Part shown: one piece after another, positions 24,628 through 39,139 of the stretch
How positions within the stretch are numbered: the stretch's first letter is position 1
Layout: each line of letters starts with the position of its first letter
Assembly: GCF_024372725.1 (NCBI RefSeq)
Contig: NZ_VOUA01000008.1
Coordinates: forward strand, 1 to 64,000
Length of the DNA stretch: 64,000 nt
Direction of reading: 5' to 3'
Origin: Methanosarcina sp. KYL-1
GTDB taxonomy: Archaea > Halobacteriota > Methanosarcinia > Methanosarcinales > Methanosarcinaceae
Translations under genes and position numbers: made by a program
Notes under the pieces: generated by a model
Database searches by the model: none
What the model saw: the letters and a program-made list of their open reading frames with translations, nothing else
What the model was told of the DNA's origin: nothing

Positions 24628-27600
24628 ATGATAAAACACAACTTAAGCCCCTCACTGATTGCCAGGTTTTTTTACCACAACTGCGAACGCTATCTCCGAT
24701 TCCACGCTACACCCCTGCAGGCACGGGAGAGAGCAGGAATCCCGAAAGCCGACCAGAACCGGAACCCTGTTACAAAAGCCCTCCTGGAGGCAGGGAACAG
24801 ATGGGAAGAAACTGTAATTCTCAACAAACTGAAGGACAATGTAATAATTCCGGCAGGTGAAGGGGCCCTTCATGAAAGGTCGCACCCGATAGGAACAAGC
24901 CTTGAAATTTTCAGGAAACTGAAGAAGGGAGATTCAGTTTACCAGCCGACAATTTCGGTTTCTCCCCGGTTCTACCGGAAGTATGATTTATCGCCCGATA
25001 CCTGCCATTTCTCCGCCTGCAGGCCTGACCTGATCAGGGTTGTCGAAAAAAAGCCTGAGGGGCTTTGCCTGCAGGTAATTGACGTAAAGGCAAGCGAGGA
25101 ACTGAGTACAAGCCACAGGATCCAGGCTACCCTGTACGCCCTGATGATGAAGGACGTGCTGGAAACAAACGATACCGGTGTGGAGGTGGACCTGGACCGG
25201 GCAGGGATCTGGCTTTCCGGGCAGGACGAGCCGGAACTTTTCAGGCTGGACTTCAACATCAGGATAATTGAGGAGTTTTTGCACTCCCGCCTGCCAAAAA
25301 TCCTCAACTCTCCCCTCAAAAACATACCCTGGCACGTCTATTCCCGCTGCGAATTATGCGATTTTTACGAATACTGCAGGAAAGAGGCTGAAGAGGCTAA
25401 TTCAGTATCCCTGGTGCCTTACCTTTCGGTCAGCGGGAGAAACTACCTCCGGGAAGCTGAGTGGGAGCGGGATAACTCTGCTTCAAACAAAAAAACCTCA
25501 AACAAACAGCCCTCAAACGACCAGCCCTCAAACAAACAGCCCTCAAACAAACAAACCTCAAACAAACAGCCCTCAAACAAACAAACCTCAAACAACCTAA
25601 CTTCAAACAACCTAACTTCAATTAACTCCCTGGATGAACTGGAAACTTTTCTGAACAAACAGGGTTCCGACGAGATCCTGGATAAATGCGGGTCCCTGCG
25701 AAACAAAGGGGATTTTTTGCGTAATACGGTTAAAGCCCTGAAAGAAAAGGAAGTCGTACTCAACAGGGGAGTTTCCCTTGCCCTCCCCAAGAACGAGGAC
25801 GTAAGCATTTTCATAACCCTTCAAAAAGACCCTGTTTCAGGCCAGGTCTATACCGCCGGGTTCAGGCGCTTCAAGGGAAAAGCCGTTTACGGAAATGCAG
25901 TGAACGAGCGCATCTATGTGGCGGAAAGCCCTGAAAAATGCGCCGAGGTCCAGAGGAATTTCCTGACGGATTTGTTTGAGGAACTGAGAACCCTTCACGA
26001 CTACAACGACAATTACAACGATGAACTTGACTGGAAAGAGCAAAAATCCCTGCAAACCTACGTTTATGACGGCTATGAACTTGACCTCTTCAGGGAACTG
26101 CTCAAGGAAGCCGTAAAAAATGCAGAGCTTGCGCCAACCGCCCTTGAGCTGCTCTTCTATTTCCAGGACCCTGCCCTGTCCGGAGGAAAGAAACACCCCT
26201 TTTCCGGAGTGTCTTTCCCGCTTATCGTGCTGACAAATGAGGTACGGAAACTTGTAAGCCTTCCAATTCCGTTTTCCCTCCGGCTCCCGGAAGTTGCCGA
26301 AGCCCTGCCTGCACCGGGCCTGGACTTTAAAATCAACCCGAGCAACCTCTTCTGGTTTGAGCACAGCAACGCCATGAAAAGCGACGCGATCTCGATGGCC
26401 TGGGAAGGCAGCCGGCCCGAAGCCGTGGACTGGGTCAAAAAGGAACTCTCGATGAGGCTTCTAGCTGCAAGCAGCGTCCTTGACGGGCTCCGCGCAAAAG
26501 CCGGGGCTTCCCTGGTCTCCTGGGCTTCGAAGTTCCGGATCCCTGCAGCCCGGAAGTACAACTACCCCGAAGTTTCGCAGATGACTTTCATCACCCGCTA
26601 CGAATCCTACCTCAGGAACCTGGAGACCCGGGAAAGGCGCAGCCTGCCCCCGGAAGAAAGGATAAAAGAAGGGATCAGCGTCCCCCTCCAGTATCTTGAG
26701 CAAAACTTATGGAAGGTAACTTCGGACCTGGACTCCTCCGTATTCGAACAAAACGAAAACATCAGCTACCTCCTCGTCCCCAGGGGCGAAGCCGGCGAAA
26801 AAGCCCAGCTCACCTTTGACGACTACAAATACAGGACAAACCTCAGGAACCCACCCAAAGGCGAAATCTGCTTTGCAGCGGTGAACAGGAAAATCAAAAA
26901 CGAAAAGACCGGGAAATTAACGGGCCTCTTCCTTGAGGTCTCATATAACGATTCTTATAACACCACATTTAACGACTTCTCAAATGGCTCTTCGAATGGC
27001 TCTTCGAATGGTTCTTTTAATGGTTCTTTTAATGGCTTCTCGAATGGCTCCTCTAAAGAAGCCAGGAAGCCCTTCAAAACAGGGGACGAAGCCGTACTCC
27101 ATATCCGGTTTACCGACTTTTCCTCGGAAAGGATAATTGACCGGCTCACCGAACTCGACGAACAGCTGGAGCACGACTTTATCCGCCTCCTCCGGGACCC
27201 CAAAAAGTTTGCAGCCCGAATCCGTGAGCCAGGCCCGTTTTTCGAAAACGCCCGGAACTACGCTGCCGAATCAGGCTTTACGGACAGCCAGAAAAAAACC
27301 TTTGGCCACATGCTCGAAAACCGCCTAACGCTGGTATGGGGCCCCCCGGGCACAGGGAAAACCTACTTCCTTGCCAGGGCAATCCTCAACATCATCAAAG
27401 CAAAAATGGAGCAGGGAGAAAAGGTCCACGTTGCCGTTACAGCCTTTACCCACTCCGCAATCGAAAACCTGCTCATAAAAATCCAGGAATTTGCAGAAGG
27501 TGAAGGGATTGCAGGGAAACTTGAGATTTACAAATTGAAAGACATAAAGACCGGCAGAGGCCAGAAAACCTTAAAAGTCCAGTCCGAATACGAAATCCAG

Positions 27601-28905
27601 GACAAGATAGACTCCCCATTCCTGATACTTGGCGGCACGGTCAACAGCTTCAACAAAATAAAAAGGAAAATGGACCCCTTTGACATCCTTATCGTTGACG
27701 AAGCCTCCCAGATGAAGCCCGCCGAACTGGCCCTCGGGATGTCAGCTTTAGGGGAAGGAAAAAGGCTTATCCTGGCCGGAGACGACCTGCAGCTCCCCCC
27801 GATCATAGCCGGAAAATACCCGGAAACCGAAGACGGCCTCCCCGGCCTGTACGATTCGATATTCTCATACCTGCGGCACAGGGATTCCCCCGAAAAACCC
27901 GAAGACCCCAAAGAGCCCAGAAACCTCAAAGTTTCCAAAGACCCAAAAGTCCCCAAAGACCCAAAAGTCCCCGAAGATCCGGCGTACACCTGCCAGCTCC
28001 TTGAAAACTGGAGGATGAATGAAACATTGTCCCGGTTTTCTTCGGCAGCCCTTTACGGGAAAGGATACAGGCCGGCTACCGAGGCGATTTCAGGGCAAAA
28101 ACTGAAACTCCTGCCTGTAACCGGCCATAAGAAAGAACCTGAACCCGGACCGAAGCCTGAACCGAAAGCCGGACAGGGATCCGAACAGAAACCCGAACAG
28201 AAACCCGAACAGAAACCCGAACAGAAACCCGAACAGAAACCCGAACAGGATCACATTTTTAGTTTCTTAAAATGGGCGCTGGACCCGGATTACCCGTTAA
28301 CCGTAATAATCCTTGAAAACACCCGGGCAACGATAGAAAACGAAATAGAAGCCGAACTGGCTGCAAAACTTGCCATACACTTAAGGCAAACCCTGTCCCG
28401 GGAAGGAGCTGGCAGCCCCTACCCGGACAATGAAGAAGGCGACTCCGAGTTCTGGAAATCCGGCCTCTTTATCGTAAGTCCCCACCGCGCCCAGATACGC
28501 ACGATCCAGGCCCACCTGAGCAAACTTAGGGCCTGCCACACCCGTCCTTTTGTAGACACAGTGGATAAAACCCAGGGCCAGGAAGCCGAAGCCGTGATAG
28601 TCAGCTACGGGGTCAGCGACACCGATACCGCAATGAACGAAGCGGAGTTCATTTACAGTTTGAACAGGCTGAACGTGTCGGTTACCAGGGCAAAGTCCAA
28701 GTGCGTGGTTTTCCTGCCGAGGCCGCTGCTGGAACCTCCCCTGGAAATTTTGCAAAATAAGGAGGCTGCTGAGGGGCTCAACCACATGCTTAACCTGGTG
28801 GAGTTCTGCAGGGAGAACGGGGAGGAGAGAGGGTTTGAGATGGAGCCGGGTTATGGGGGGGTTTGCAGGTTGACGGGGATCAGGGCGAAGAGTGAAACTA
28901 AATGA
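24628..28905 (+). CDS. PD-(D/E)XK nuclease fused to a superfamily 1 helicase
   Basis: The N-terminal ~330 residues are a RecB/Cas4-like (TM0106-type) nuclease: catalytic LQVIDVKASEE, QATLYALMM, and a late cysteine set C-x2-C-x5-C (CELCDFYEYC) that, with an early Cys near FYHNCERY, could hold an iron-sulfur cluster. The C-terminal half is a Dna2/Upf1-like SF1 helicase: GPPGTGKT, IVDEASQM, GDDLQLPPI, NWRMNE, DKTQGQEAEAV and NVSVTRAKS. Four unrelated in-frame low-complexity repeats interrupt it (SNKQP, SNGS, KDPKVP and EQKP units). A role in DNA repair or defence is plausible; no partner gene is adjacent on either side. Confidence 0.93.
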   Translation: MIKHNLSPSLIARFFYHNCERYLRFHATPLQARERAGIPKADQNRNPVTKALLEAGNRWEETVILNKLKDNVIIPAGEGALHERSHPIGTSLEIFRKLKKGDSVYQPTISVSPRFYRKYDLSPDTCHFSACRPDLIRVVEKKPEGLCLQVIDVKASEELSTSHRIQATLYALMMKDVLETNDTGVEVDLDRAGIWLSGQDEPELFRLDFNIRIIEEFLHSRLPKILNSPLKNIPWHVYSRCELCDFYEYCRKEAEEANSVSLVPYLSVSGRNYLREAEWERDNSASNKKTSNKQPSNDQPSNKQPSNKQTSNKQPSNKQTSNNLTSNNLTSINSLDELETFLNKQGSDEILDKCGSLRNKGDFLRNTVKALKEKEVVLNRGVSLALPKNEDVSIFITLQKDPVSGQVYTAGFRRFKGKAVYGNAVNERIYVAESPEKCAEVQRNFLTDLFEELRTLHDYNDNYNDELDWKEQKSLQTYVYDGYELDLFRELLKEAVKNAELAPTALELLFYFQDPALSGGKKHPFSGVSFPLIVLTNEVRKLVSLPIPFSLRLPEVAEALPAPGLDFKINPSNLFWFEHSNAMKSDAISMAWEGSRPEAVDWVKKELSMRLLAASSVLDGLRAKAGASLVSWASKFRIPAARKYNYPEVSQMTFITRYESYLRNLETRERRSLPPEERIKEGISVPLQYLEQNLWKVTSDLDSSVFEQNENISYLLVPRGEAGEKAQLTFDDYKYRTNLRNPPKGEICFAAVNRKIKNEKTGKLTGLFLEVSYNDSYNTTFNDFSNGSSNGSSNGSFNGSFNGFSNGSSKEARKPFKTGDEAVLHIRFTDFSSERIIDRLTELDEQLEHDFIRLLRDPKKFAARIREPGPFFENARNYAAESGFTDSQKKTFGHMLENRLTLVWGPPGTGKTYFLARAILNIIKAKMEQGEKVHVAVTAFTHSAIENLLIKIQEFAEGEGIAGKLEIYKLKDIKTGRGQKTLKVQSEYEIQDKIDSPFLILGGTVNSFNKIKRKMDPFDILIVDEASQMKPAELALGMSALGEGKRLILAGDDLQLPPIIAGKYPETEDGLPGLYDSIFSYLRHRDSPEKPEDPKEPRNLKVSKDPKVPKDPKVPEDPAYTCQLLENWRMNETLSRFSSAALYGKGYRPATEAISGQKLKLLPVTGHKKEPEPGPKPEPKAGQGSEQKPEQKPEQKPEQKPEQKPEQDHIFSFLKWALDPDYPLTVIILENTRATIENEIEAELAAKLAIHLRQTLSREGAGSPYPDNEEGDSEFWKSGLFIVSPHRAQIRTIQAHLSKLRACHTRPFVDTVDKTQGQEAEAVIVSYGVSDTDTAMNEAEFIYSLNRLNVSVTRAKSKCVVFLPRPLLEPPLEILQNKEAAEGLNHMLNLVEFCRENGEERGFEMEPGYGGVCRLTGIRAKSETK
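25484..25622 (+). repeat. In-frame 15-bp repeat in the nuclease-helicase gene
   Basis: Nine or so copies of AACAAACAGCCCTCA variants encode an Asn/Gln/Ser-rich linker between the nuclease and middle region. Confidence 0.9.
26976..27056 (+). repeat. In-frame 12-bp repeat in the nuclease-helicase gene
   Basis: About six GGCTCTTCGAAT-like units encode Ser-Asn-Gly linker residues just before the helicase domain. Confidence 0.9.
27893..27984 (+). repeat. In-frame repeat (KDPKVP) in the helicase domain
   Basis: AAAGACCCAAAAGTCCCC units insert a charged Pro/Lys linker between the GDDLQLPPI motif and NWRMNE. Confidence 0.85.
28175..28250 (+). repeat. In-frame 12-bp repeat (EQKP) in the helicase domain
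   Basis: Six perfect GAACAGAAACCC units, preceded by related EPGPKPEP codons. Confidence 0.9.
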
Positions 28906-29360
28906 GGAATAAAATCGCAATTCTGGCCGCCAGTTTTTGTGAAGATTTCTCTGGAAATGAAATTGCGCTTTTTGTTTTACTGAATCAAAACCCACGGCCC
29001 TCACGACTTCTTTGACCCCGACAGCGGCCCCCGTTTCGCAGCAAACGGCCTTTTCCTTGAATTTAATGAAGAAGATGAAGATGAAGAATAAAATAAAGAA
29101 GGTGAGGAAAAAAATAAAGAAGGTGAAGATGAAGATGAAGATGAAAATGAAGATGAAAAAGTGTCAGCTGCTTACATAACAGCTGCGTATATATTTCATC
29201 TATCATATCGTATATTATATAGATGGCTGAGATTCAAGCAGGGATGAGATTTCCAGTTTAGTTGAGATTTCCAGTCTGGCTGAGATTTCCAATCGGGTGT
29301 AACGCAGGCCTGAGCGTTTAAAAATACGGGACGAACTCTATGGAAGACAGAGAACCACAC
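28906..29360. other. Intergenic region with gene fragment and GAAGATGAA minisatellite
   Basis: A short frame at about 28989-29090 reads HGPHDFFDPDSGPRFAANG then an acidic tail; it looks like the C-terminal end of a lost gene but I cannot name it. 29066-29160 is a purine-rich GAAGATGAA repeat. A GTCAGCTGC/CAGCTGC hairpin lies near 29163, and GAGATTTCCAG occurs four times at 29245-29300. Confidence 0.45.
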
Positions 29361-30002
29361 ATGGACGTTTAGCAGATCCGGCTTCTTATCGCAGAAAGAA
29401 AGGGTGAAATAAAGGAGAAATTCAAAGCAGAAGTAATGGATATCTTCGGTTCATACGCACGCGGGAAGGAAAAAGAAGGAAGCGATATTGATGTCCTTGT
29501 GAGGTTCGGGGAAGGAGCAGGCCTTTTTGATTATACCGGGCTTGAGTTCTATCTCGAAGACCTGTTTGGAGTTCCGGTGGATGTTGTTTCGGAAAGGGAC
29601 CTTCATCCGATAGTTAGAGCTGATATATTGAAGGGAACTGCCGGGGGCATAAAATCCCCTCTGCTTTACCTGTGCGAGATGCTCAAAGCTGCCAGAAATA
29701 TAAAAAAGTTCACTGAAGGGGTGGACAAGGACACTTTTCTGGAGGACAATCTAACAAAGGATGCAGTTGTACTCCAGCTGGAGATCGCAGGTAAAGCCGC
29801 AAAATCCGTTTCTGCCGATATACGGTCAAAGGCTCCGGAAGTAGATTGGGAGGGTCTGATGGGAATGGGAGACCGCCTGATATCGGCTTATTTTGATGTA
29901 GATTATGACCATGTCTGGGATGCCGCAATAAAAGACGTCCCGGTGATTGAACGGGCTATTGGAAGATTGATTAACGAATTGAATTCCGGCAAGCAGGGAT
30001 AA
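29361..30002 (+). CDS. MNT nucleotidyltransferase-HEPN fusion with in-frame amber codon
   Basis: A single chain joining MntA (residues ~1-95) to HepT (~100-210), normally two proteins of a toxin-antitoxin pair. The MNT part has GSYARGKEKEGSDIDVLV and the third Asp in PVDVVSE. The HEPN part matches HepT in order, but its R-x4-H RNase motif reads MGDRLISAY, with Gly and Ser for Arg and His; the Tyr that MntA AMPylates remains. The family's N-terminal helix is encoded upstream of ATG 29436, in frame with ATG 29361 (or 29340) but with TAG as codon 4. Pyrrolysine readthrough, or use of ATG 29436 (188 residues), would both give protein. The zinc-finger gene follows after 35 nt. Confidence 0.75.
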
Positions 30003-30037: not shown

Positions 30038-30442
30038 ATGAAGCCGGACAGGTGCACATTCTGCAGGGGAAAAATCTCCGAAGGCAAAGCTGAGTTCCTG
30101 GGAAAAGTCGGGCAGAAAGTCCTCGTCATTAAAGGTATTCCCGCGTATGTCTGCGAAGACTGCGGGGAGGCCTATTACACACCTGAGGTTTCCGGAATAA
30201 TTGACGGGATCAGGAAGGACTTCAGCGAATCGAAGCTGCTCTTGCGTCCCATTGCAGCCGGGGAACTGAGCTTTGACGAATATGCCTCCGCAGACGACGG
30301 TAGAGACGACGGTAGAACGGATCCTGAATGCGAAGAATTCATGGAAAAGCAGTACAAAAAACTTGAAGAGAGGAAAAAATTTGTCCCTTTCGAGAACCTT
30401 GATGTCGGGTATCGGAAAAAGCATCAGGGAAGAAGTAATTGA
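30038..30442 (+). CDS. YgiT/MqsA-type zinc finger protein
   Basis: The N-terminus carries the MqsA-like zinc site: Cys6-x2-Cys9 (CTFC) and Cys39-x2-Cys42 (CEDC) with the family's PAYVCEDCGEAYYTPE. The remaining 80 residues are acidic and then basic, with no helix-turn-helix that I can recognise. Members usually act as antitoxins or regulators beside MqsR or DUF4258 toxins; no such toxin is here. Its partner by position is the MNT-HEPN gene 35 nt upstream, and a GGGGGA site 7 nt before ATG supports the start. A short DDGR duplication is seen near residue 90. Confidence 0.85.
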   Translation: MKPDRCTFCRGKISEGKAEFLGKVGQKVLVIKGIPAYVCEDCGEAYYTPEVSGIIDGIRKDFSESKLLLRPIAAGELSFDEYASADDGRDDGRTDPECEEFMEKQYKKLEERKKFVPFENLDVGYRKKHQGRSN

Positions 30443-31216
30443 GATTTGATCAGGATTCAAGCTTCCTGGTTGGGAAGGATTTTCAGGGGACTCTGCCGGT
30501 TAAATCTTTTTTGCTTCTTTTTTTTGCATTATTTTTGGGGCAGGCATGGAATAGCCGCACTGCGTGCGGACAGGAACGGTTAAGGACGGTATTACGGTTG
30601 CCCTGTTTTCCAGCTTACGGATCATCAAGCAGACTCTGGTTTTTTATGCTGAACTGCAGCCCGAGTTCTGCGTAGGGAGTTTTAAGACACAATAATTATA
30701 TTTATTCTCCCGCCACATCTCCGCATATTCCGGACCACCCAAGCAAGCCGAACCCAAGCAATCTGAGGGACTGGAGAGACTGTCCTTTTGCAGACCCAGA
30801 GGGTAACCTGCATTTTTCTGACTAACTTCAGTAAAGAAGTAAAAAGAGCCTGTTTGATGAGCTCAAGAGGAATAACATAAATCTGAAAGTCACTTTATTT
30901 TTATAGGAAGAATTTCATATGGATACCATGCTTGAATTCAAATAATTTACAAAAGAAATTTAATTAAGCCTTTGAGAATCCCGAATAAGAAAACTTTTCA
31001 CGTATTTTATTAGTCTGGATTAGTATTTGAAGGCCCTTCCAGGTGGAGGATATGCAAAGCGCACTTCTGGGAAAAGCGGCTCTTCCAGAAAAGACCCGGG
31101 TAAGATGCGGATTATGTCGGAGTGAAAATTTAAGGGCACTGGAATCATAACTGGATATGGAAACCCAACAGGCGTGGAAACCCAACAGGTATAAAATATC
31201 AGGAACTATGGTCACT
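30443..31216. other. Long intergenic region with one copy of a duplicated block
   Basis: A perfect hairpin CCGCAC-TGC-GTGCGG is at 30553-30567. 30675-30797 aligns with 33487-33614 (shared GGGAGTTTTAAGAC, ATTATATTT, CAAGC and CTTTTGCAG in the same order). TATA-like sequence and a weak 32-codon frame (31052-31150, with one CxxC) precede the ATPase gene. Confidence 0.5.
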
Positions 31217-32575
31217 ATGAAGGTTAAGAAAGTGAGTCTGACAAATTACCGGGGTGCTCAGGACCTTTCCATGGACTTAAATCCACAACTTAATGTTTTT
31301 GTTGGTGTAAATGGTTCCGGTAAATCAACGGTCCTGGATGCAATAGCCATCATGCTTTCATGGGCTGTCAGCAGGATTAACCGTGCGGGAGCAGCGGGCA
31401 GGCCTATCGTTGAAAGTGATATTAGCAATGGTAAGTCTACGGCGTCCATTGAGTTATCCTGCGAAACTGAGGGCAGGACTGTTGGGTGGAAGTTGTCAAA
31501 AGTCAGAAAGGGGTATGCTGCGGAAGACAGGACTAACCTTCAGGAACTGAATGAATATGCAAAAGAAATTCAGAATAGGATCTCCGAAACTTCTGAAAAT
31601 GTAAACCTTCCAATATTCGACTATTACCCGGTGAACCGTGCCGTGCTGGATATCCCTTTGAGGATACGCGGAAGGCACAGCTTTGGCTTGCTTGCAGCTT
31701 ATGAAGGTGCTTTGACCAGCGGGGCAGATTTCAGGACCTTTTTTGAGTGGTTCCGCGAGAGGGAAGACCTTGAAAACGAGATCCTGAGACATCGAAGGGA
31801 TCAGGAGACTCAATTGGATCAGAAGACCCGATTAACTCTTCGGGACTATGAACTGCACTATGGAAACGAAAACACAAAGAATGCAGCTGTTAAACCGGGG
31901 GAGTGCCGGTTCCCGGACCCGCAGCTGGAAGCTGTCCGTACTGCCCTGAGCAGGTTCTTGCCGGAATTTTCAAACCTGACCGTACGCAGGCAGCCTTTGC
32001 GTATGGAAGTTGAGAAAAACGGCAAACCTTTTACTGTGAACCAGCTTTCCGATGGGGAAAAGTGCCTGATTGCATTGATCGGAGACCTGGCGAGAAGGCT
32101 GGCAATTTTGAACCCTGTCTCCGCAAACCCGCTGGAGGGCACGGGTATTGTCCTTATAGACGAAATCGACCTCCACCTGCACCCAAAATGGCAGAGGATG
32201 GTGGTTCCTAAATTACTGGACGTTTTTCCGAACTGCCAGTTTATCGTATCTACCCATTCCCCAAGTGTTATCACCCACGTGCAGCATGAGAGTTTGTTCC
32301 TCCTCAAGCAAACGGACTCAGGAATTGTTGCTGAAAAGCCAGGAGAGTCCTACGGGAAAACCGTGGACAGGGTACTTGAAGACCTTATGGGCCTGGAAAC
32401 GACAAGACCGAATGAGGTAGAGTCGGACCTTGATACTATTTTTGAGACTATCAATGCCGGTAAAATAGAAGAAGCAAGAAACCTGATTTCAGCCCTGAAG
32501 GAAAAAATCGGAGCTGACCCTGAACTTGTGAAAGCCGAGGTCCTGATAAAAAGGAAAGAGCTGATCGGCAAGTGA
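31217..32575 (+). CDS. ptuA: PtuA-like AAA ATPase (Septu-type defence)
   Basis: An RecF/OLD-like ABC-type ATPase of about 452 residues. Walker A is GVNGSGKST, the signature LSDGEKCLIALIGDLARR, Walker B IVLIDEIDLHLHP, and the H-loop STHSPSVI. No TOPRIM follows, so it is not OLD. Its stop overlaps the GTG start of an HNH gene (GTGA), the gene pair of Septu anti-phage systems, where PtuA binds nucleotide and controls the PtuB nuclease. I chose ATG 31217 because homology starts at MKVKKVSLTNYRG; ATG 31208 and 31157 are upstream options. No reverse transcriptase is near, so it is not a retron-linked version. Confidence 0.85.
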   Translation: MKVKKVSLTNYRGAQDLSMDLNPQLNVFVGVNGSGKSTVLDAIAIMLSWAVSRINRAGAAGRPIVESDISNGKSTASIELSCETEGRTVGWKLSKVRKGYAAEDRTNLQELNEYAKEIQNRISETSENVNLPIFDYYPVNRAVLDIPLRIRGRHSFGLLAAYEGALTSGADFRTFFEWFREREDLENEILRHRRDQETQLDQKTRLTLRDYELHYGNENTKNAAVKPGECRFPDPQLEAVRTALSRFLPEFSNLTVRRQPLRMEVEKNGKPFTVNQLSDGEKCLIALIGDLARRLAILNPVSANPLEGTGIVLIDEIDLHLHPKWQRMVVPKLLDVFPNCQFIVSTHSPSVITHVQHESLFLLKQTDSGIVAEKPGESYGKTVDRVLEDLMGLETTRPNEVESDLDTIFETINAGKIEEARNLISALKEKIGADPELVKAEVLIKRKELIGK

Positions 32576-33207
32576 AGCATATTGTCAAAAACCGGGAACC
32601 CCTGGAACTCACCACATGGAAGGCTTTGTCCAGCCCGGACTGGGACCCGGACTACTAAACCCTCAGCGGCAAGGAAAAAAAAGCCGTAAAAACTTCCCTG
32701 ATGGAGGAGCAGGGTTACATCTGCTGCTACTGTGAACGGCGGCTTACAGATGACGATTCCCATATCGAGCATTTCAGGCCCCAGAGTGACCCCTCTGTCG
32801 ACCCCCTGGATTACTCCAACATGCTCTGTTCCTGCCAGAACCAGCTGAAACAGGGAGAACCCCGGCACTGCGGAAACCTGAAAGGCAACTGGTTTGACCC
32901 CCTCCTCCTGGTCTCCCCCCTTGACCCGGCCTGCGAGGCACGTTTTACTCACACCGCAGACGGCAAAATCCGCCCTGCCAGCGAATCCGACGATGCAGCA
33001 AGGGCAACAATCGAAAAACTGGGCCTAAACATCCCGAAATTGAACAACCTCCGCAAAAAAGCAATAGAACCATTCCTGGACGAAACCCTGGAAGCCCGGG
33101 AGTTTTCCCTCTTCGTAACCGGCTACCTCAGAAAAAGCCGCGAAGGAACGTTCGGTGAATTCTGGACAACTATCAATTTCCTTTTCGGGCAATTAGCGGC
33201 TCAGTAA
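32572..33207 (+). pseudogene. ptuB: PtuB-like HNH nuclease interrupted by an ochre codon
   Basis: The frame beginning with GTG 32572 reads VKHIVKNREPLELTTWKAL as in PtuB/TIGR02646 proteins, meets TAA at 32656-32658 (codon 29), and continues in the same frame through the HNH core: CCYCERR, HIEHFRPQ, YSNMLCSC and HCGNLKGN. One base change (AAA to TAA) explains the break. A restart at ATG 32701 would yield 168 residues with the whole zinc/HNH centre but no N-terminal region; no ribosome site precedes it. Translationally coupled to ptuA by the GTGA overlap. The system is either recently disabled or uses the short form. Confidence 0.8.
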
Positions 33208-33851: not shown

Positions 33852-34190
33852 TTATTCTTCCCTCTCCTCATAAACCCCGGTAAGCAATATTCTCTTCTCA
33901 AAACCCCCTCTCTCTTCCCTCTTCTTCTCCTGGACCCTCAGCACATCCTCGAACCCCCTGATGCGGGAAAGGGTATCAATGACCTCCTTTACGTCAGCCA
34001 GCTCCTCTACACAGGGATCTTCCGTAAACTCGGCTACCTCTTCATGGAGCTTCTTAACAAGGTATCTCAGATATTCCCGGTCCCCGTCAAGAATTTTGCA
34101 CTCCGGGGTCCGGTTTGAGGTCTTTATGATTTCGGGAATTTTGTCGCGGACGAGTTTGTCATGGGATGTGAAGGTGGGTTTTTCGGGCAT
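33852..34190 (-). CDS. MazG-like NTP pyrophosphohydrolase (COG4997), intact copy
   Basis: All-alpha house-cleaning nucleotide pyrophosphatase of 112 residues. The family start DKLVRDKIPEII is followed by the metal-binding helices: LHEEVAEFTEDP (E-x2-E) and VEELADVKEVIDTL (E-x2-D). It would hydrolyse non-canonical NTPs to NMP and pyrophosphate. The C-terminus (KKREERGGFEKRILLTGVY) is also conserved in the family. This is the only full-length copy of four in 6 kb; the others are at 35685, 38836 and 39959. Its upstream 250 bp is also duplicated. Confidence 0.9.
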   Translation of the reverse strand: MPEKPTFTSHDKLVRDKIPEIIKTSNRTPECKILDGDREYLRYLVKKLHEEVAEFTEDPCVEELADVKEVIDTLSRIRGFEDVLRVQEKKREERGGFEKRILLTGVYEEREE

Positions 34191-35684: not shown

Positions 35685-35966
35685 TTAAATCGACTTATGT
35701 TCCAGACGCACCCTCAAAACGTCCTCAAACCCCAGGATCCCCAAAAGCGCATCAATGACCTCCATCACATCAGCCAGTTCCTCAACACAGGGGTCCTCCG
35801 TAAATTCCAGTGCTTCCTCCTGAAGCTTTTTAATGAGGTAGCGCAGGTATTCCCGGTCCTCATCGAGGGTCCTGCATTCTGGGATTCGGTTTGAGGTTTT
35901 CATGATTTCGGGGATTTTGTCGCGGACCAGTTTGTCATAGGGTATGAAGGTGGGTTTTTCGGGCAT
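35685..35966 (-). pseudogene. MazG-like NTP pyrophosphohydrolase, C-terminally truncated copy
   Basis: Residues 1-86 match the intact copy at 33852 nearly one for one (DKLVRDKIPEIM, LQEEALEFTEDP, VEELADVMEVIDAL). It then ends after FEDVLRV with the unrelated RLEHKSI, losing the last ~25 residues. The metal-binding residues survive, so the 93-residue product could still fold. The upstream region is duplicated too. Whether it is expressed is unknown. Confidence 0.75.
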
Positions 35967-38835: not shown

Positions 38836-39139
38836 TCACTCTTCCCTCCCCTCAAAAACCCCCGTAAGCAAAACCCTCCCCGAAAATCCCCCTCTCTCCT
38901 CCCTCTTCCTCTCCTGCACCCTCAGAACATCCTCAAACCCCCTGATCCCGGAAAGCGCATCAATGACCTCCCTCACATCAGCCAGTTCCTCAACACAGGG
39001 GTCCTCCGTAAATTCCAGGGCTTCCTCCTGAAGCTTTTTAATGAGGTAGCGCAGGTATTCCTGGCCCTCATCGAGGGTCCTGCACTCCGGGGTCCGGTTT
39101 GAGGTCTTTATGATTTCGGGGATTTTGTCGCGGACGAGC
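38836..39139 (-). pseudogene. MazG-like pyrophosphohydrolase, 5'-truncated copy
   Basis: Read on the minus strand it matches the intact copy from about the RDKIPEI region to the C-terminus (LQEEALEFTEDP, ELADVREVID, GGFSGRVLLTGVFEG, stop). The beginning is cut at 39139, where a fragment of another gene is joined directly. Confidence 0.8.

What the first reader, a model, noticed from the sequence alone, without database searches (positions are those of the whole stretch)
29361..29435. In-frame amber codon in an MNT-HEPN gene: pyrrolysine or nonsense
The N-terminal helix of the nucleotidyltransferase is encoded without other stops between ATG 29361 and the core, except for TAG at codon 4. No start codon lies between the TAG and ATG 29436. 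Methanosarcina decode TAG as pyrrolysine, so this gene could make its full product only when pyrrolysine is available, coupling a toxin-type enzyme to the methylamine-linked code. A simple CAG to TAG mutation is the alternative.
Basis: partly seen in the sequence, partly recalled or inferred. Interest (0 to 1): 0.75.

Follow-up and report, generated by a model that had tools for sequence, protein, structure and literature searches.

The report
Leaky amber stop in tamed antitoxin
A Methanosarcina gene that joins an antitoxin enzyme to a dead toxin domain has picked up a stop codon near its start that every relative lacks; the cell can probably read through it some of the time with the rare amino acid pyrrolysine, but nothing shows that this is a designed switch.

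Summary
The in-frame TAG (29370-29372) is real, and no ATG/GTG/TTG lies between it and ATG 29436. The gene is misread in three ways. (1) By homology it starts at ATG 29340, so TAG is codon 11, not 4. (2) It is an MNT-HEPN fusion; in this family HEPN is the toxin and MNT the antitoxin, and here the HEPN RNase motif RX4HXY is dead: His is lost in all three fused orthologues, Arg too in the window. (3) All ten relatives examined have AAC, AAT or GAT there (Asn/Asp); none has TAG or CAG, so the change is confined to this lineage and needs two substitutions from Asn. The genome carries pylT, pylS and a TAG-containing mtmB, and M. acetivorans reads introduced ambers at about 20-30%, so some Pyl-containing full-length protein is plausible. 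Codons behind the TAG were under purifying selection for most of the window branch (omega 0.25, limits about 0.14-0.46), so TAG is recent or tolerated. Across 31 Methanosarcina genomes TAG is not enriched among stops interrupting MNT/HEPN genes (5 of 25). Best reading: a recent, leaky amber allele of a domesticated, non-toxic fusion. A Pyl-gated function is not excluded but has no support.

The parts
29340..30002 (+). Fused MNT-HEPN reading frame, 221 codons including the internal TAG and final TAA; start by homology
   Evidence: Collinear with the 221- and 222-aa fused orthologues in DH2 (L031) and STD2 (L032), 75-76% identical
29370..29372 (+). In-frame TAG, codon 11; Asn (AAC/AAT) or Asp (GAT) in ten relatives
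29373..29435 (+). 21 codons without a start codon, encoding the N-terminal helix and start of the first strand of MNT; protein-like substitution pattern
   Evidence: Codon score 0.287 per codon and no start codon; against DH2 two amino acid changes and six silent codon changes
29436..29438 (+). Internal ATG, start of the 188-residue ORF; that form would lack the MNT N-terminus
   Evidence: Truncated form matches PF01909 only from profile position 19 of 93, the full frame from position 5; nearest GGAG lies 18 nt upstream
29448..29492 (+). MNT adenylyltransferase motif GSX10DXD, intact (GSYARGKEKEGSDID)
   Evidence: motif definition from PMC7641770
29634..29657 (+). Linker where the two split genes became one frame (ILK-GTAGGI-KSP): block spacing 291 instead of 290 nt, HEPN start ATG changed to ATA
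29868..29891 (+). HEPN RNase motif position RX4HXY reads GDRLISAY: Arg and His lost, acceptor Tyr kept
   Evidence: Split relatives keep RDRLIHAY, RDRIIHAY or RDRMIHAY
30038..30442 (+). Neighbouring YgiT-type zinc-finger protein gene, also next to the fused gene in DH2 and STD2
   Evidence: TIGR03831 E 1.1e-8; tblastn

Best explanation
The gene is a domesticated MNT-HEPN fusion: a former toxin-antitoxin pair joined by a one-base frame change, with an intact adenylyltransferase motif and a HEPN domain that has lost its RNase residues and now probably serves as a binding or regulatory part. In the window's lineage the Asn codon at position 11 recently became TAG. Most ribosomes that start at ATG 29340 should stop after 10 codons; a minority insert pyrrolysine, because this organism carries tRNA-Pyl and PylS, giving a little full-length protein. 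This is a leaky, probably degenerating allele rather than an evolved switch. Shown: the TAG, the sense codon in relatives, the fusion, the lost RNase residues, the intact MNT motif, past purifying selection, presence of the Pyl genes. Inferred: readthrough at this codon, its level, and that the allele is recent and not selected for.
For: TAG in the window only; AAC/AAT/GAT in ten relatives. RNase His lost in all three fused orthologues, Arg also lost in the window. The fused clade has higher omega than split relatives (0.285 against 0.141, 2dlnL 11.4), mainly in HEPN (0.44 against 0.16; MNT 0.17 against 0.10). Window branch omega 0.25, limits about 0.14-0.46, omega 1 rejected (2dlnL 19.3). A paralogue of the fused gene in DH2 is already broken by several stops. 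Stops interrupting MNT/HEPN domains across the genus: 10 TGA, 10 TAA, 5 TAG. pylT, pylS and mtmB with TAG present. Literature: introduced amber read at an apparent 20-30% in M. acetivorans (PMC2933860); HEPN domains fused to MNT typically lack RNase residues and are seen as domesticated TA systems (PMC3710099).
Against: The frame behind TAG is open for 209 codons, with constraint no weaker on the window branch (0.25) than in the other fused branches (0.30), so degeneration is not visible beyond the TAG itself and the Arg-to-Gly change in HEPN. AAY to TAG needs two substitutions, so an intermediate (Lys AAG or Tyr TAY) was probably passed, which is less casual than one point mutation. TAG is avoided as a terminator here (5 of 203 ORFs), as expected if it is often read as sense.
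Confidence: 0.6

Rival explanations
1. Plain pseudogene: TAG ends translation, no useful full-length protein is made, and the gene has not yet had time to accumulate further lesions.
For: Orthologues have sense codons; about one in seven to eight HEPN matches in the genus carries a stop; the DH2 paralogue is a broken copy; the predicted ribosome-binding pairing before ATG 29340 is weaker than in DH2 and STD2 (-3.7 against -11.5 and -7.1 kcal/mol).
Against: Amber codons leak in Pyl-decoding Methanosarcina (PMC2933860), so complete loss is unlikely; omega on the window branch is not raised; G009, with an uninterrupted gene, has equally weak pairing (-3.3).
Confidence: 0.22
2. True Pyl-dependent gene: TAG 11 is retained and read as pyrrolysine, so the MNT enzyme is made only when Pyl-tRNA is charged, linking it to methylamine metabolism.
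For: Pyl genes present; coding constraint behind TAG; the 21 codons between TAG and ATG 29436 still look coding.
Against: TAG not shared by any relative; RNase toxin dead; TAG not enriched among interruptions of the family; only one genome with the codon, so no conservation can be shown.
Confidence: 0.08
3. The protein is made as the 188-residue form from ATG 29436, so the TAG is irrelevant.
For: ATG 29436 is in frame and a GGAG lies upstream.
Against: That form lacks the N-terminal helix and part of the first strand of the MNT fold; ATG 29436 is not conserved (DH2 GTT, STD2 GTA); GGAG is 18 nt away, too far for normal use; 29373-29435 evolves like coding sequence.
Confidence: 0.06
4. Sequencing or assembly error.
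For: No reads available to check.
Against: An error would have to change two of three bases of one codon (AAY to TAG); the contig is 122 kb and the rest of the gene is clean.
Confidence: 0.03

Closest known systems
HepT-MntA (type VII) toxin-antitoxin modules
   Same: PF01934 and PF01909 domains, GSX10DXD motif, split relatives in the same genus with RX4HXY
   Different: One fused protein; RNase His (and here Arg) lost, so no toxin activity expected; scores for the NCBIfam MntA and HepT models lie below their cut-offs
Domesticated MNT-HEPN fusions with inactive HEPN (kanamycin nucleotidyltransferase and glutamine synthetase adenylyltransferase type; described in PMC3710099)
   Same: MNT fused to a HEPN domain lacking RNase residues
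   Different: Fusion confined to three Methanosarcina species among the genomes held; HEPN still matches HepT-like PF01934; substrate unknown
Pyl-encoding genes with in-frame TAG (mtmB, mtbB, mttB; some transposases; Thg1)
   Same: In-frame TAG in a Pyl-decoding Methanosarcina, with the frame continuing
   Different: TAG not conserved in orthologues, near the N-terminus, not at an active site

Membership tests
HepT-MntA type VII toxin-antitoxin | MNT with GSX10DXD | tested here: met
   GSYARGKEKEGSDID at 29448
HepT-MntA type VII toxin-antitoxin | HEPN with RX4HXY | tested here: not met
   GDRLISAY in the window, RDHLICTY and RDRLISDY in the other two fusions
HepT-MntA type VII toxin-antitoxin | Two separate neighbouring genes | tested here: not met
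   Single frame in three genomes
HepT-MntA type VII toxin-antitoxin | Toxicity neutralised by adenylylation of the HEPN Tyr | not testable with these tools
   Acceptor Tyr is present; activity unknown
Domesticated MNT-HEPN fusion | Fusion with HEPN lacking RNase residues while the MNT motif is kept | tested here: met
   description in PMC3710099
Domesticated MNT-HEPN fusion | Nucleotidyltransferase activity on a new target | not testable with these tools
   Needs biochemistry
Pyrrolysine-encoded protein | Pyl decoding genes in the genome | tested here: met
   pylS E 5e-125, pylT 100% over 69 nt, mtmB with 1 TAG
Pyrrolysine-encoded protein | In-frame TAG conserved in orthologues | tested here: not met
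   AAC/AAT/GAT in all ten
Pyrrolysine-encoded protein | Pyl found in the protein | not testable with these tools
   Needs mass spectrometry

The most novel reading that the evidence does not exclude
An adenylyltransferase derived from a tamed toxin-antitoxin pair whose production depends on pyrrolysine, so that its activity follows methylamine metabolism.
Probability: 0.08. Interest if true: 0.6.

Novelty: new member of a known kind. Interest (0 to 1): 0.22.

Why it matters
It is a clear case of an amber arising inside a constrained gene in an organism where amber is partly sense, useful for asking how Pyl decoding buffers nonsense mutations. It also adds a young example of a toxin-antitoxin pair fused and stripped of its RNase residues while the antitoxin enzyme is kept. 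It is not evidence for a Pyl-controlled toxin.

Tried and rejected
CAG-to-TAG origin: rejected, no relative has CAG. TAG enrichment in the family as a sign of tolerated recoding: not seen (5 of 25; a crude mutational expectation was 36%, computed with a transition weight double the fitted kappa, and the share of TAG among all stop triplets is about 18%). Codon-score scan of 340 kb for other stop-interrupted genes: 3 TAG, 7 TGA, 0 TAA, most of them doubtful by eye; one other TAG case is a truncated MazG-like copy at about 39141. AlphaFold of the read-through protein with three sequences: MNT part unusable (pLDDT about 30-45), HEPN part fair (about 60-88), so no fold search was made. Viral contigs: no relatives. 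In-frame TAG in an own-genome HEPN match on C33: upstream of a truncated remnant, not a second case.

Full report
What is there. The frame beginning at ATG 29361 reads MDV*QIRLLIAERKGEIKEKF... with one TAG, then is open to the stop at 30000-30002. No ATG, GTG or TTG lies between TAG and ATG 29436, 21 codons on. The window lies in a 4.04 Mb Methanosarcina genome, contig C8, which has pylS (E 5e-125), a sequence identical over 69 nt to the pylT query (typed from my own knowledge of Methanosarcina pylT), and mtmB copies with one in-frame TAG. Pyl decoding is thus available.

What the gene is. The product has a PF01909 nucleotidyltransferase (MNT) and a PF01934 HepT-like HEPN domain in one chain. 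Two genomes of the genus hold full-length fused orthologues without stops, 75-76% identical: Methanosarcina sp. DH2 (L031) and the MAG STD2_179 (L032). DH2 also shares the neighbours: the YgiT-type zinc-finger gene and a MazG-like gene further on. Other Methanosarcina have the closest relatives as two overlapping genes. Between the two aligned blocks the split pairs have 290 nt and the fusions 291 nt, and the HEPN start ATG has become ATA: a net one-base change joined the genes.

Start and codon. DH2, STD2, G007 and G009 begin with ATG at the position of window 29340 (MENKETH-, MENKEVH-, MEDKEIH-); at 29361 DH2 and STD2 have Ile codons. The start is therefore most likely 29340 and TAG is codon 11. 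At this codon ten sequences have a sense codon: AAC in DH2, its broken paralogue, G003, G030 and G020; AAT in STD2, G009 and G007; GAT in G008 and G010. TAG is unique to the window, and reaching it from AAY takes two substitutions.

The toxin is dead. In HepT-MntA systems HEPN is the RNase toxin with RX4HXY and MNT is the antitoxin that adenylylates its Tyr through GSX10DXD (PMC7641770). Split relatives keep RDR(L/I/M)IHAY; the three fusions read GDRLISAY (window), RDHLICTY (DH2) and RDRLISDY (STD2). The catalytic His is lost in all three and the Arg also in the window, while the MNT motif is intact. That loss of these residues abolishes RNase activity is inferred from the family, not tested. 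A survey of the superfamily states that HEPN domains fused to MNT typically lack RNase residues and reflect domesticated TA systems (PMC3710099).

Selection. A codon model written here (GY94-type, eight sequences, stops masked) gives omega 0.141 for split genes and 0.285 for the fused clade (2dlnL 11.4); by domain MNT 0.10 against 0.17 and HEPN 0.16 against 0.44. The window branch has 0.25 (limits about 0.14-0.46), and omega 1 is rejected (2dlnL 19.3). If TAG abolished function, at most about a quarter of the branch can have been neutral (my arithmetic from the upper limit: (0.46-0.30)/(1-0.30)). The change is thus recent, or tolerated. These data cannot separate the two.

Is TAG special here? 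In 340 kb of the genome 5 of 203 long ORFs end in TAG, against a share of about 18% among stop triplets: TAG is avoided as a terminator. Among HEPN and MNT family matches in 31 Methanosarcina genomes the listed stops inside are 10 TGA, 10 TAA and 5 TAG (tallied by hand; the MNT list was cut off by the tool). TAG is not in excess, as it might be if amber were broadly tolerated in this family. About 18 of some 134 HEPN matches carry a stop, so decay in this family is common.

Mechanism. UAG serves as both sense and stop in Pyl archaea; an amber placed in uidA gave mostly terminated product but an apparent 20-30% full-length in M. acetivorans (PMC2933860), and insertion is thought to rest on competition with release factor, without a required cis element (PMC8211752). 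The simplest account is that codon 11 is a new amber in a non-toxic, domesticated gene, with low passive Pyl insertion. Predicted pairing of the upstream region with the 16S 3' end is weak (-3.7 kcal/mol against -11.5 in DH2 and -7.1 in STD2), but G009 is as weak (-3.3), so this is not decisive. Use of ATG 29436 is unlikely: it is not conserved, lacks a well-placed ribosome site, and would remove the first part of the MNT fold.

Verdict. The codon is real; the start, the ancestral codon and the toxin reading are wrong. A leaky amber allele is most likely (0.6); an outright pseudogene is the main rival (0.22) and overlaps with it; a Pyl-controlled enzyme is possible but unsupported (0.08).

Noticed in passing
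window 31157-33207 (+): PtuA-like ATPase (PADLOC PtuA E 2e-161) followed by a PtuB-like HNH protein (E 8e-79): a Septu-type defence pair directly downstream; not seen between the same neighbours in DH2.
   Followed up: partly
window 33855-34190, 35706-35966, 38839-39135 (-): Three copies of a MazG-like gene (79-82% identical to the first); the third lacks its start and has a TAG just upstream at about 39141 within GP*L repeats.
   Followed up: partly
L076:6616-7222 (DH2, G021:C26 26615-27221): Broken paralogue of the fused MNT-HEPN gene about 3 kb upstream of the intact one, with several stops and frame changes, and with an active-type RDRLTHAY motif in another frame.
   Followed up: partly
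L075 (G012:C57:6040-6297): HEPN gene of another subfamily with an in-frame TAG at a position that is Gln in relatives (NLV*DGTIRQ), a possible second amber case in the genus.
   Followed up: no
L074 (G008:C1 1502955-1503557): MNT-HEPN pair whose HEPN frame has TAG where relatives have Asp or Lys (RGI*IREAK), close to an unclear start.
   Followed up: no
window 24628-28905 (+): 1425-aa protein with a Cas4-like part and a helicase part, resembling DpdJ and MkoA defence profiles, just upstream of the fused gene.
   Followed up: no
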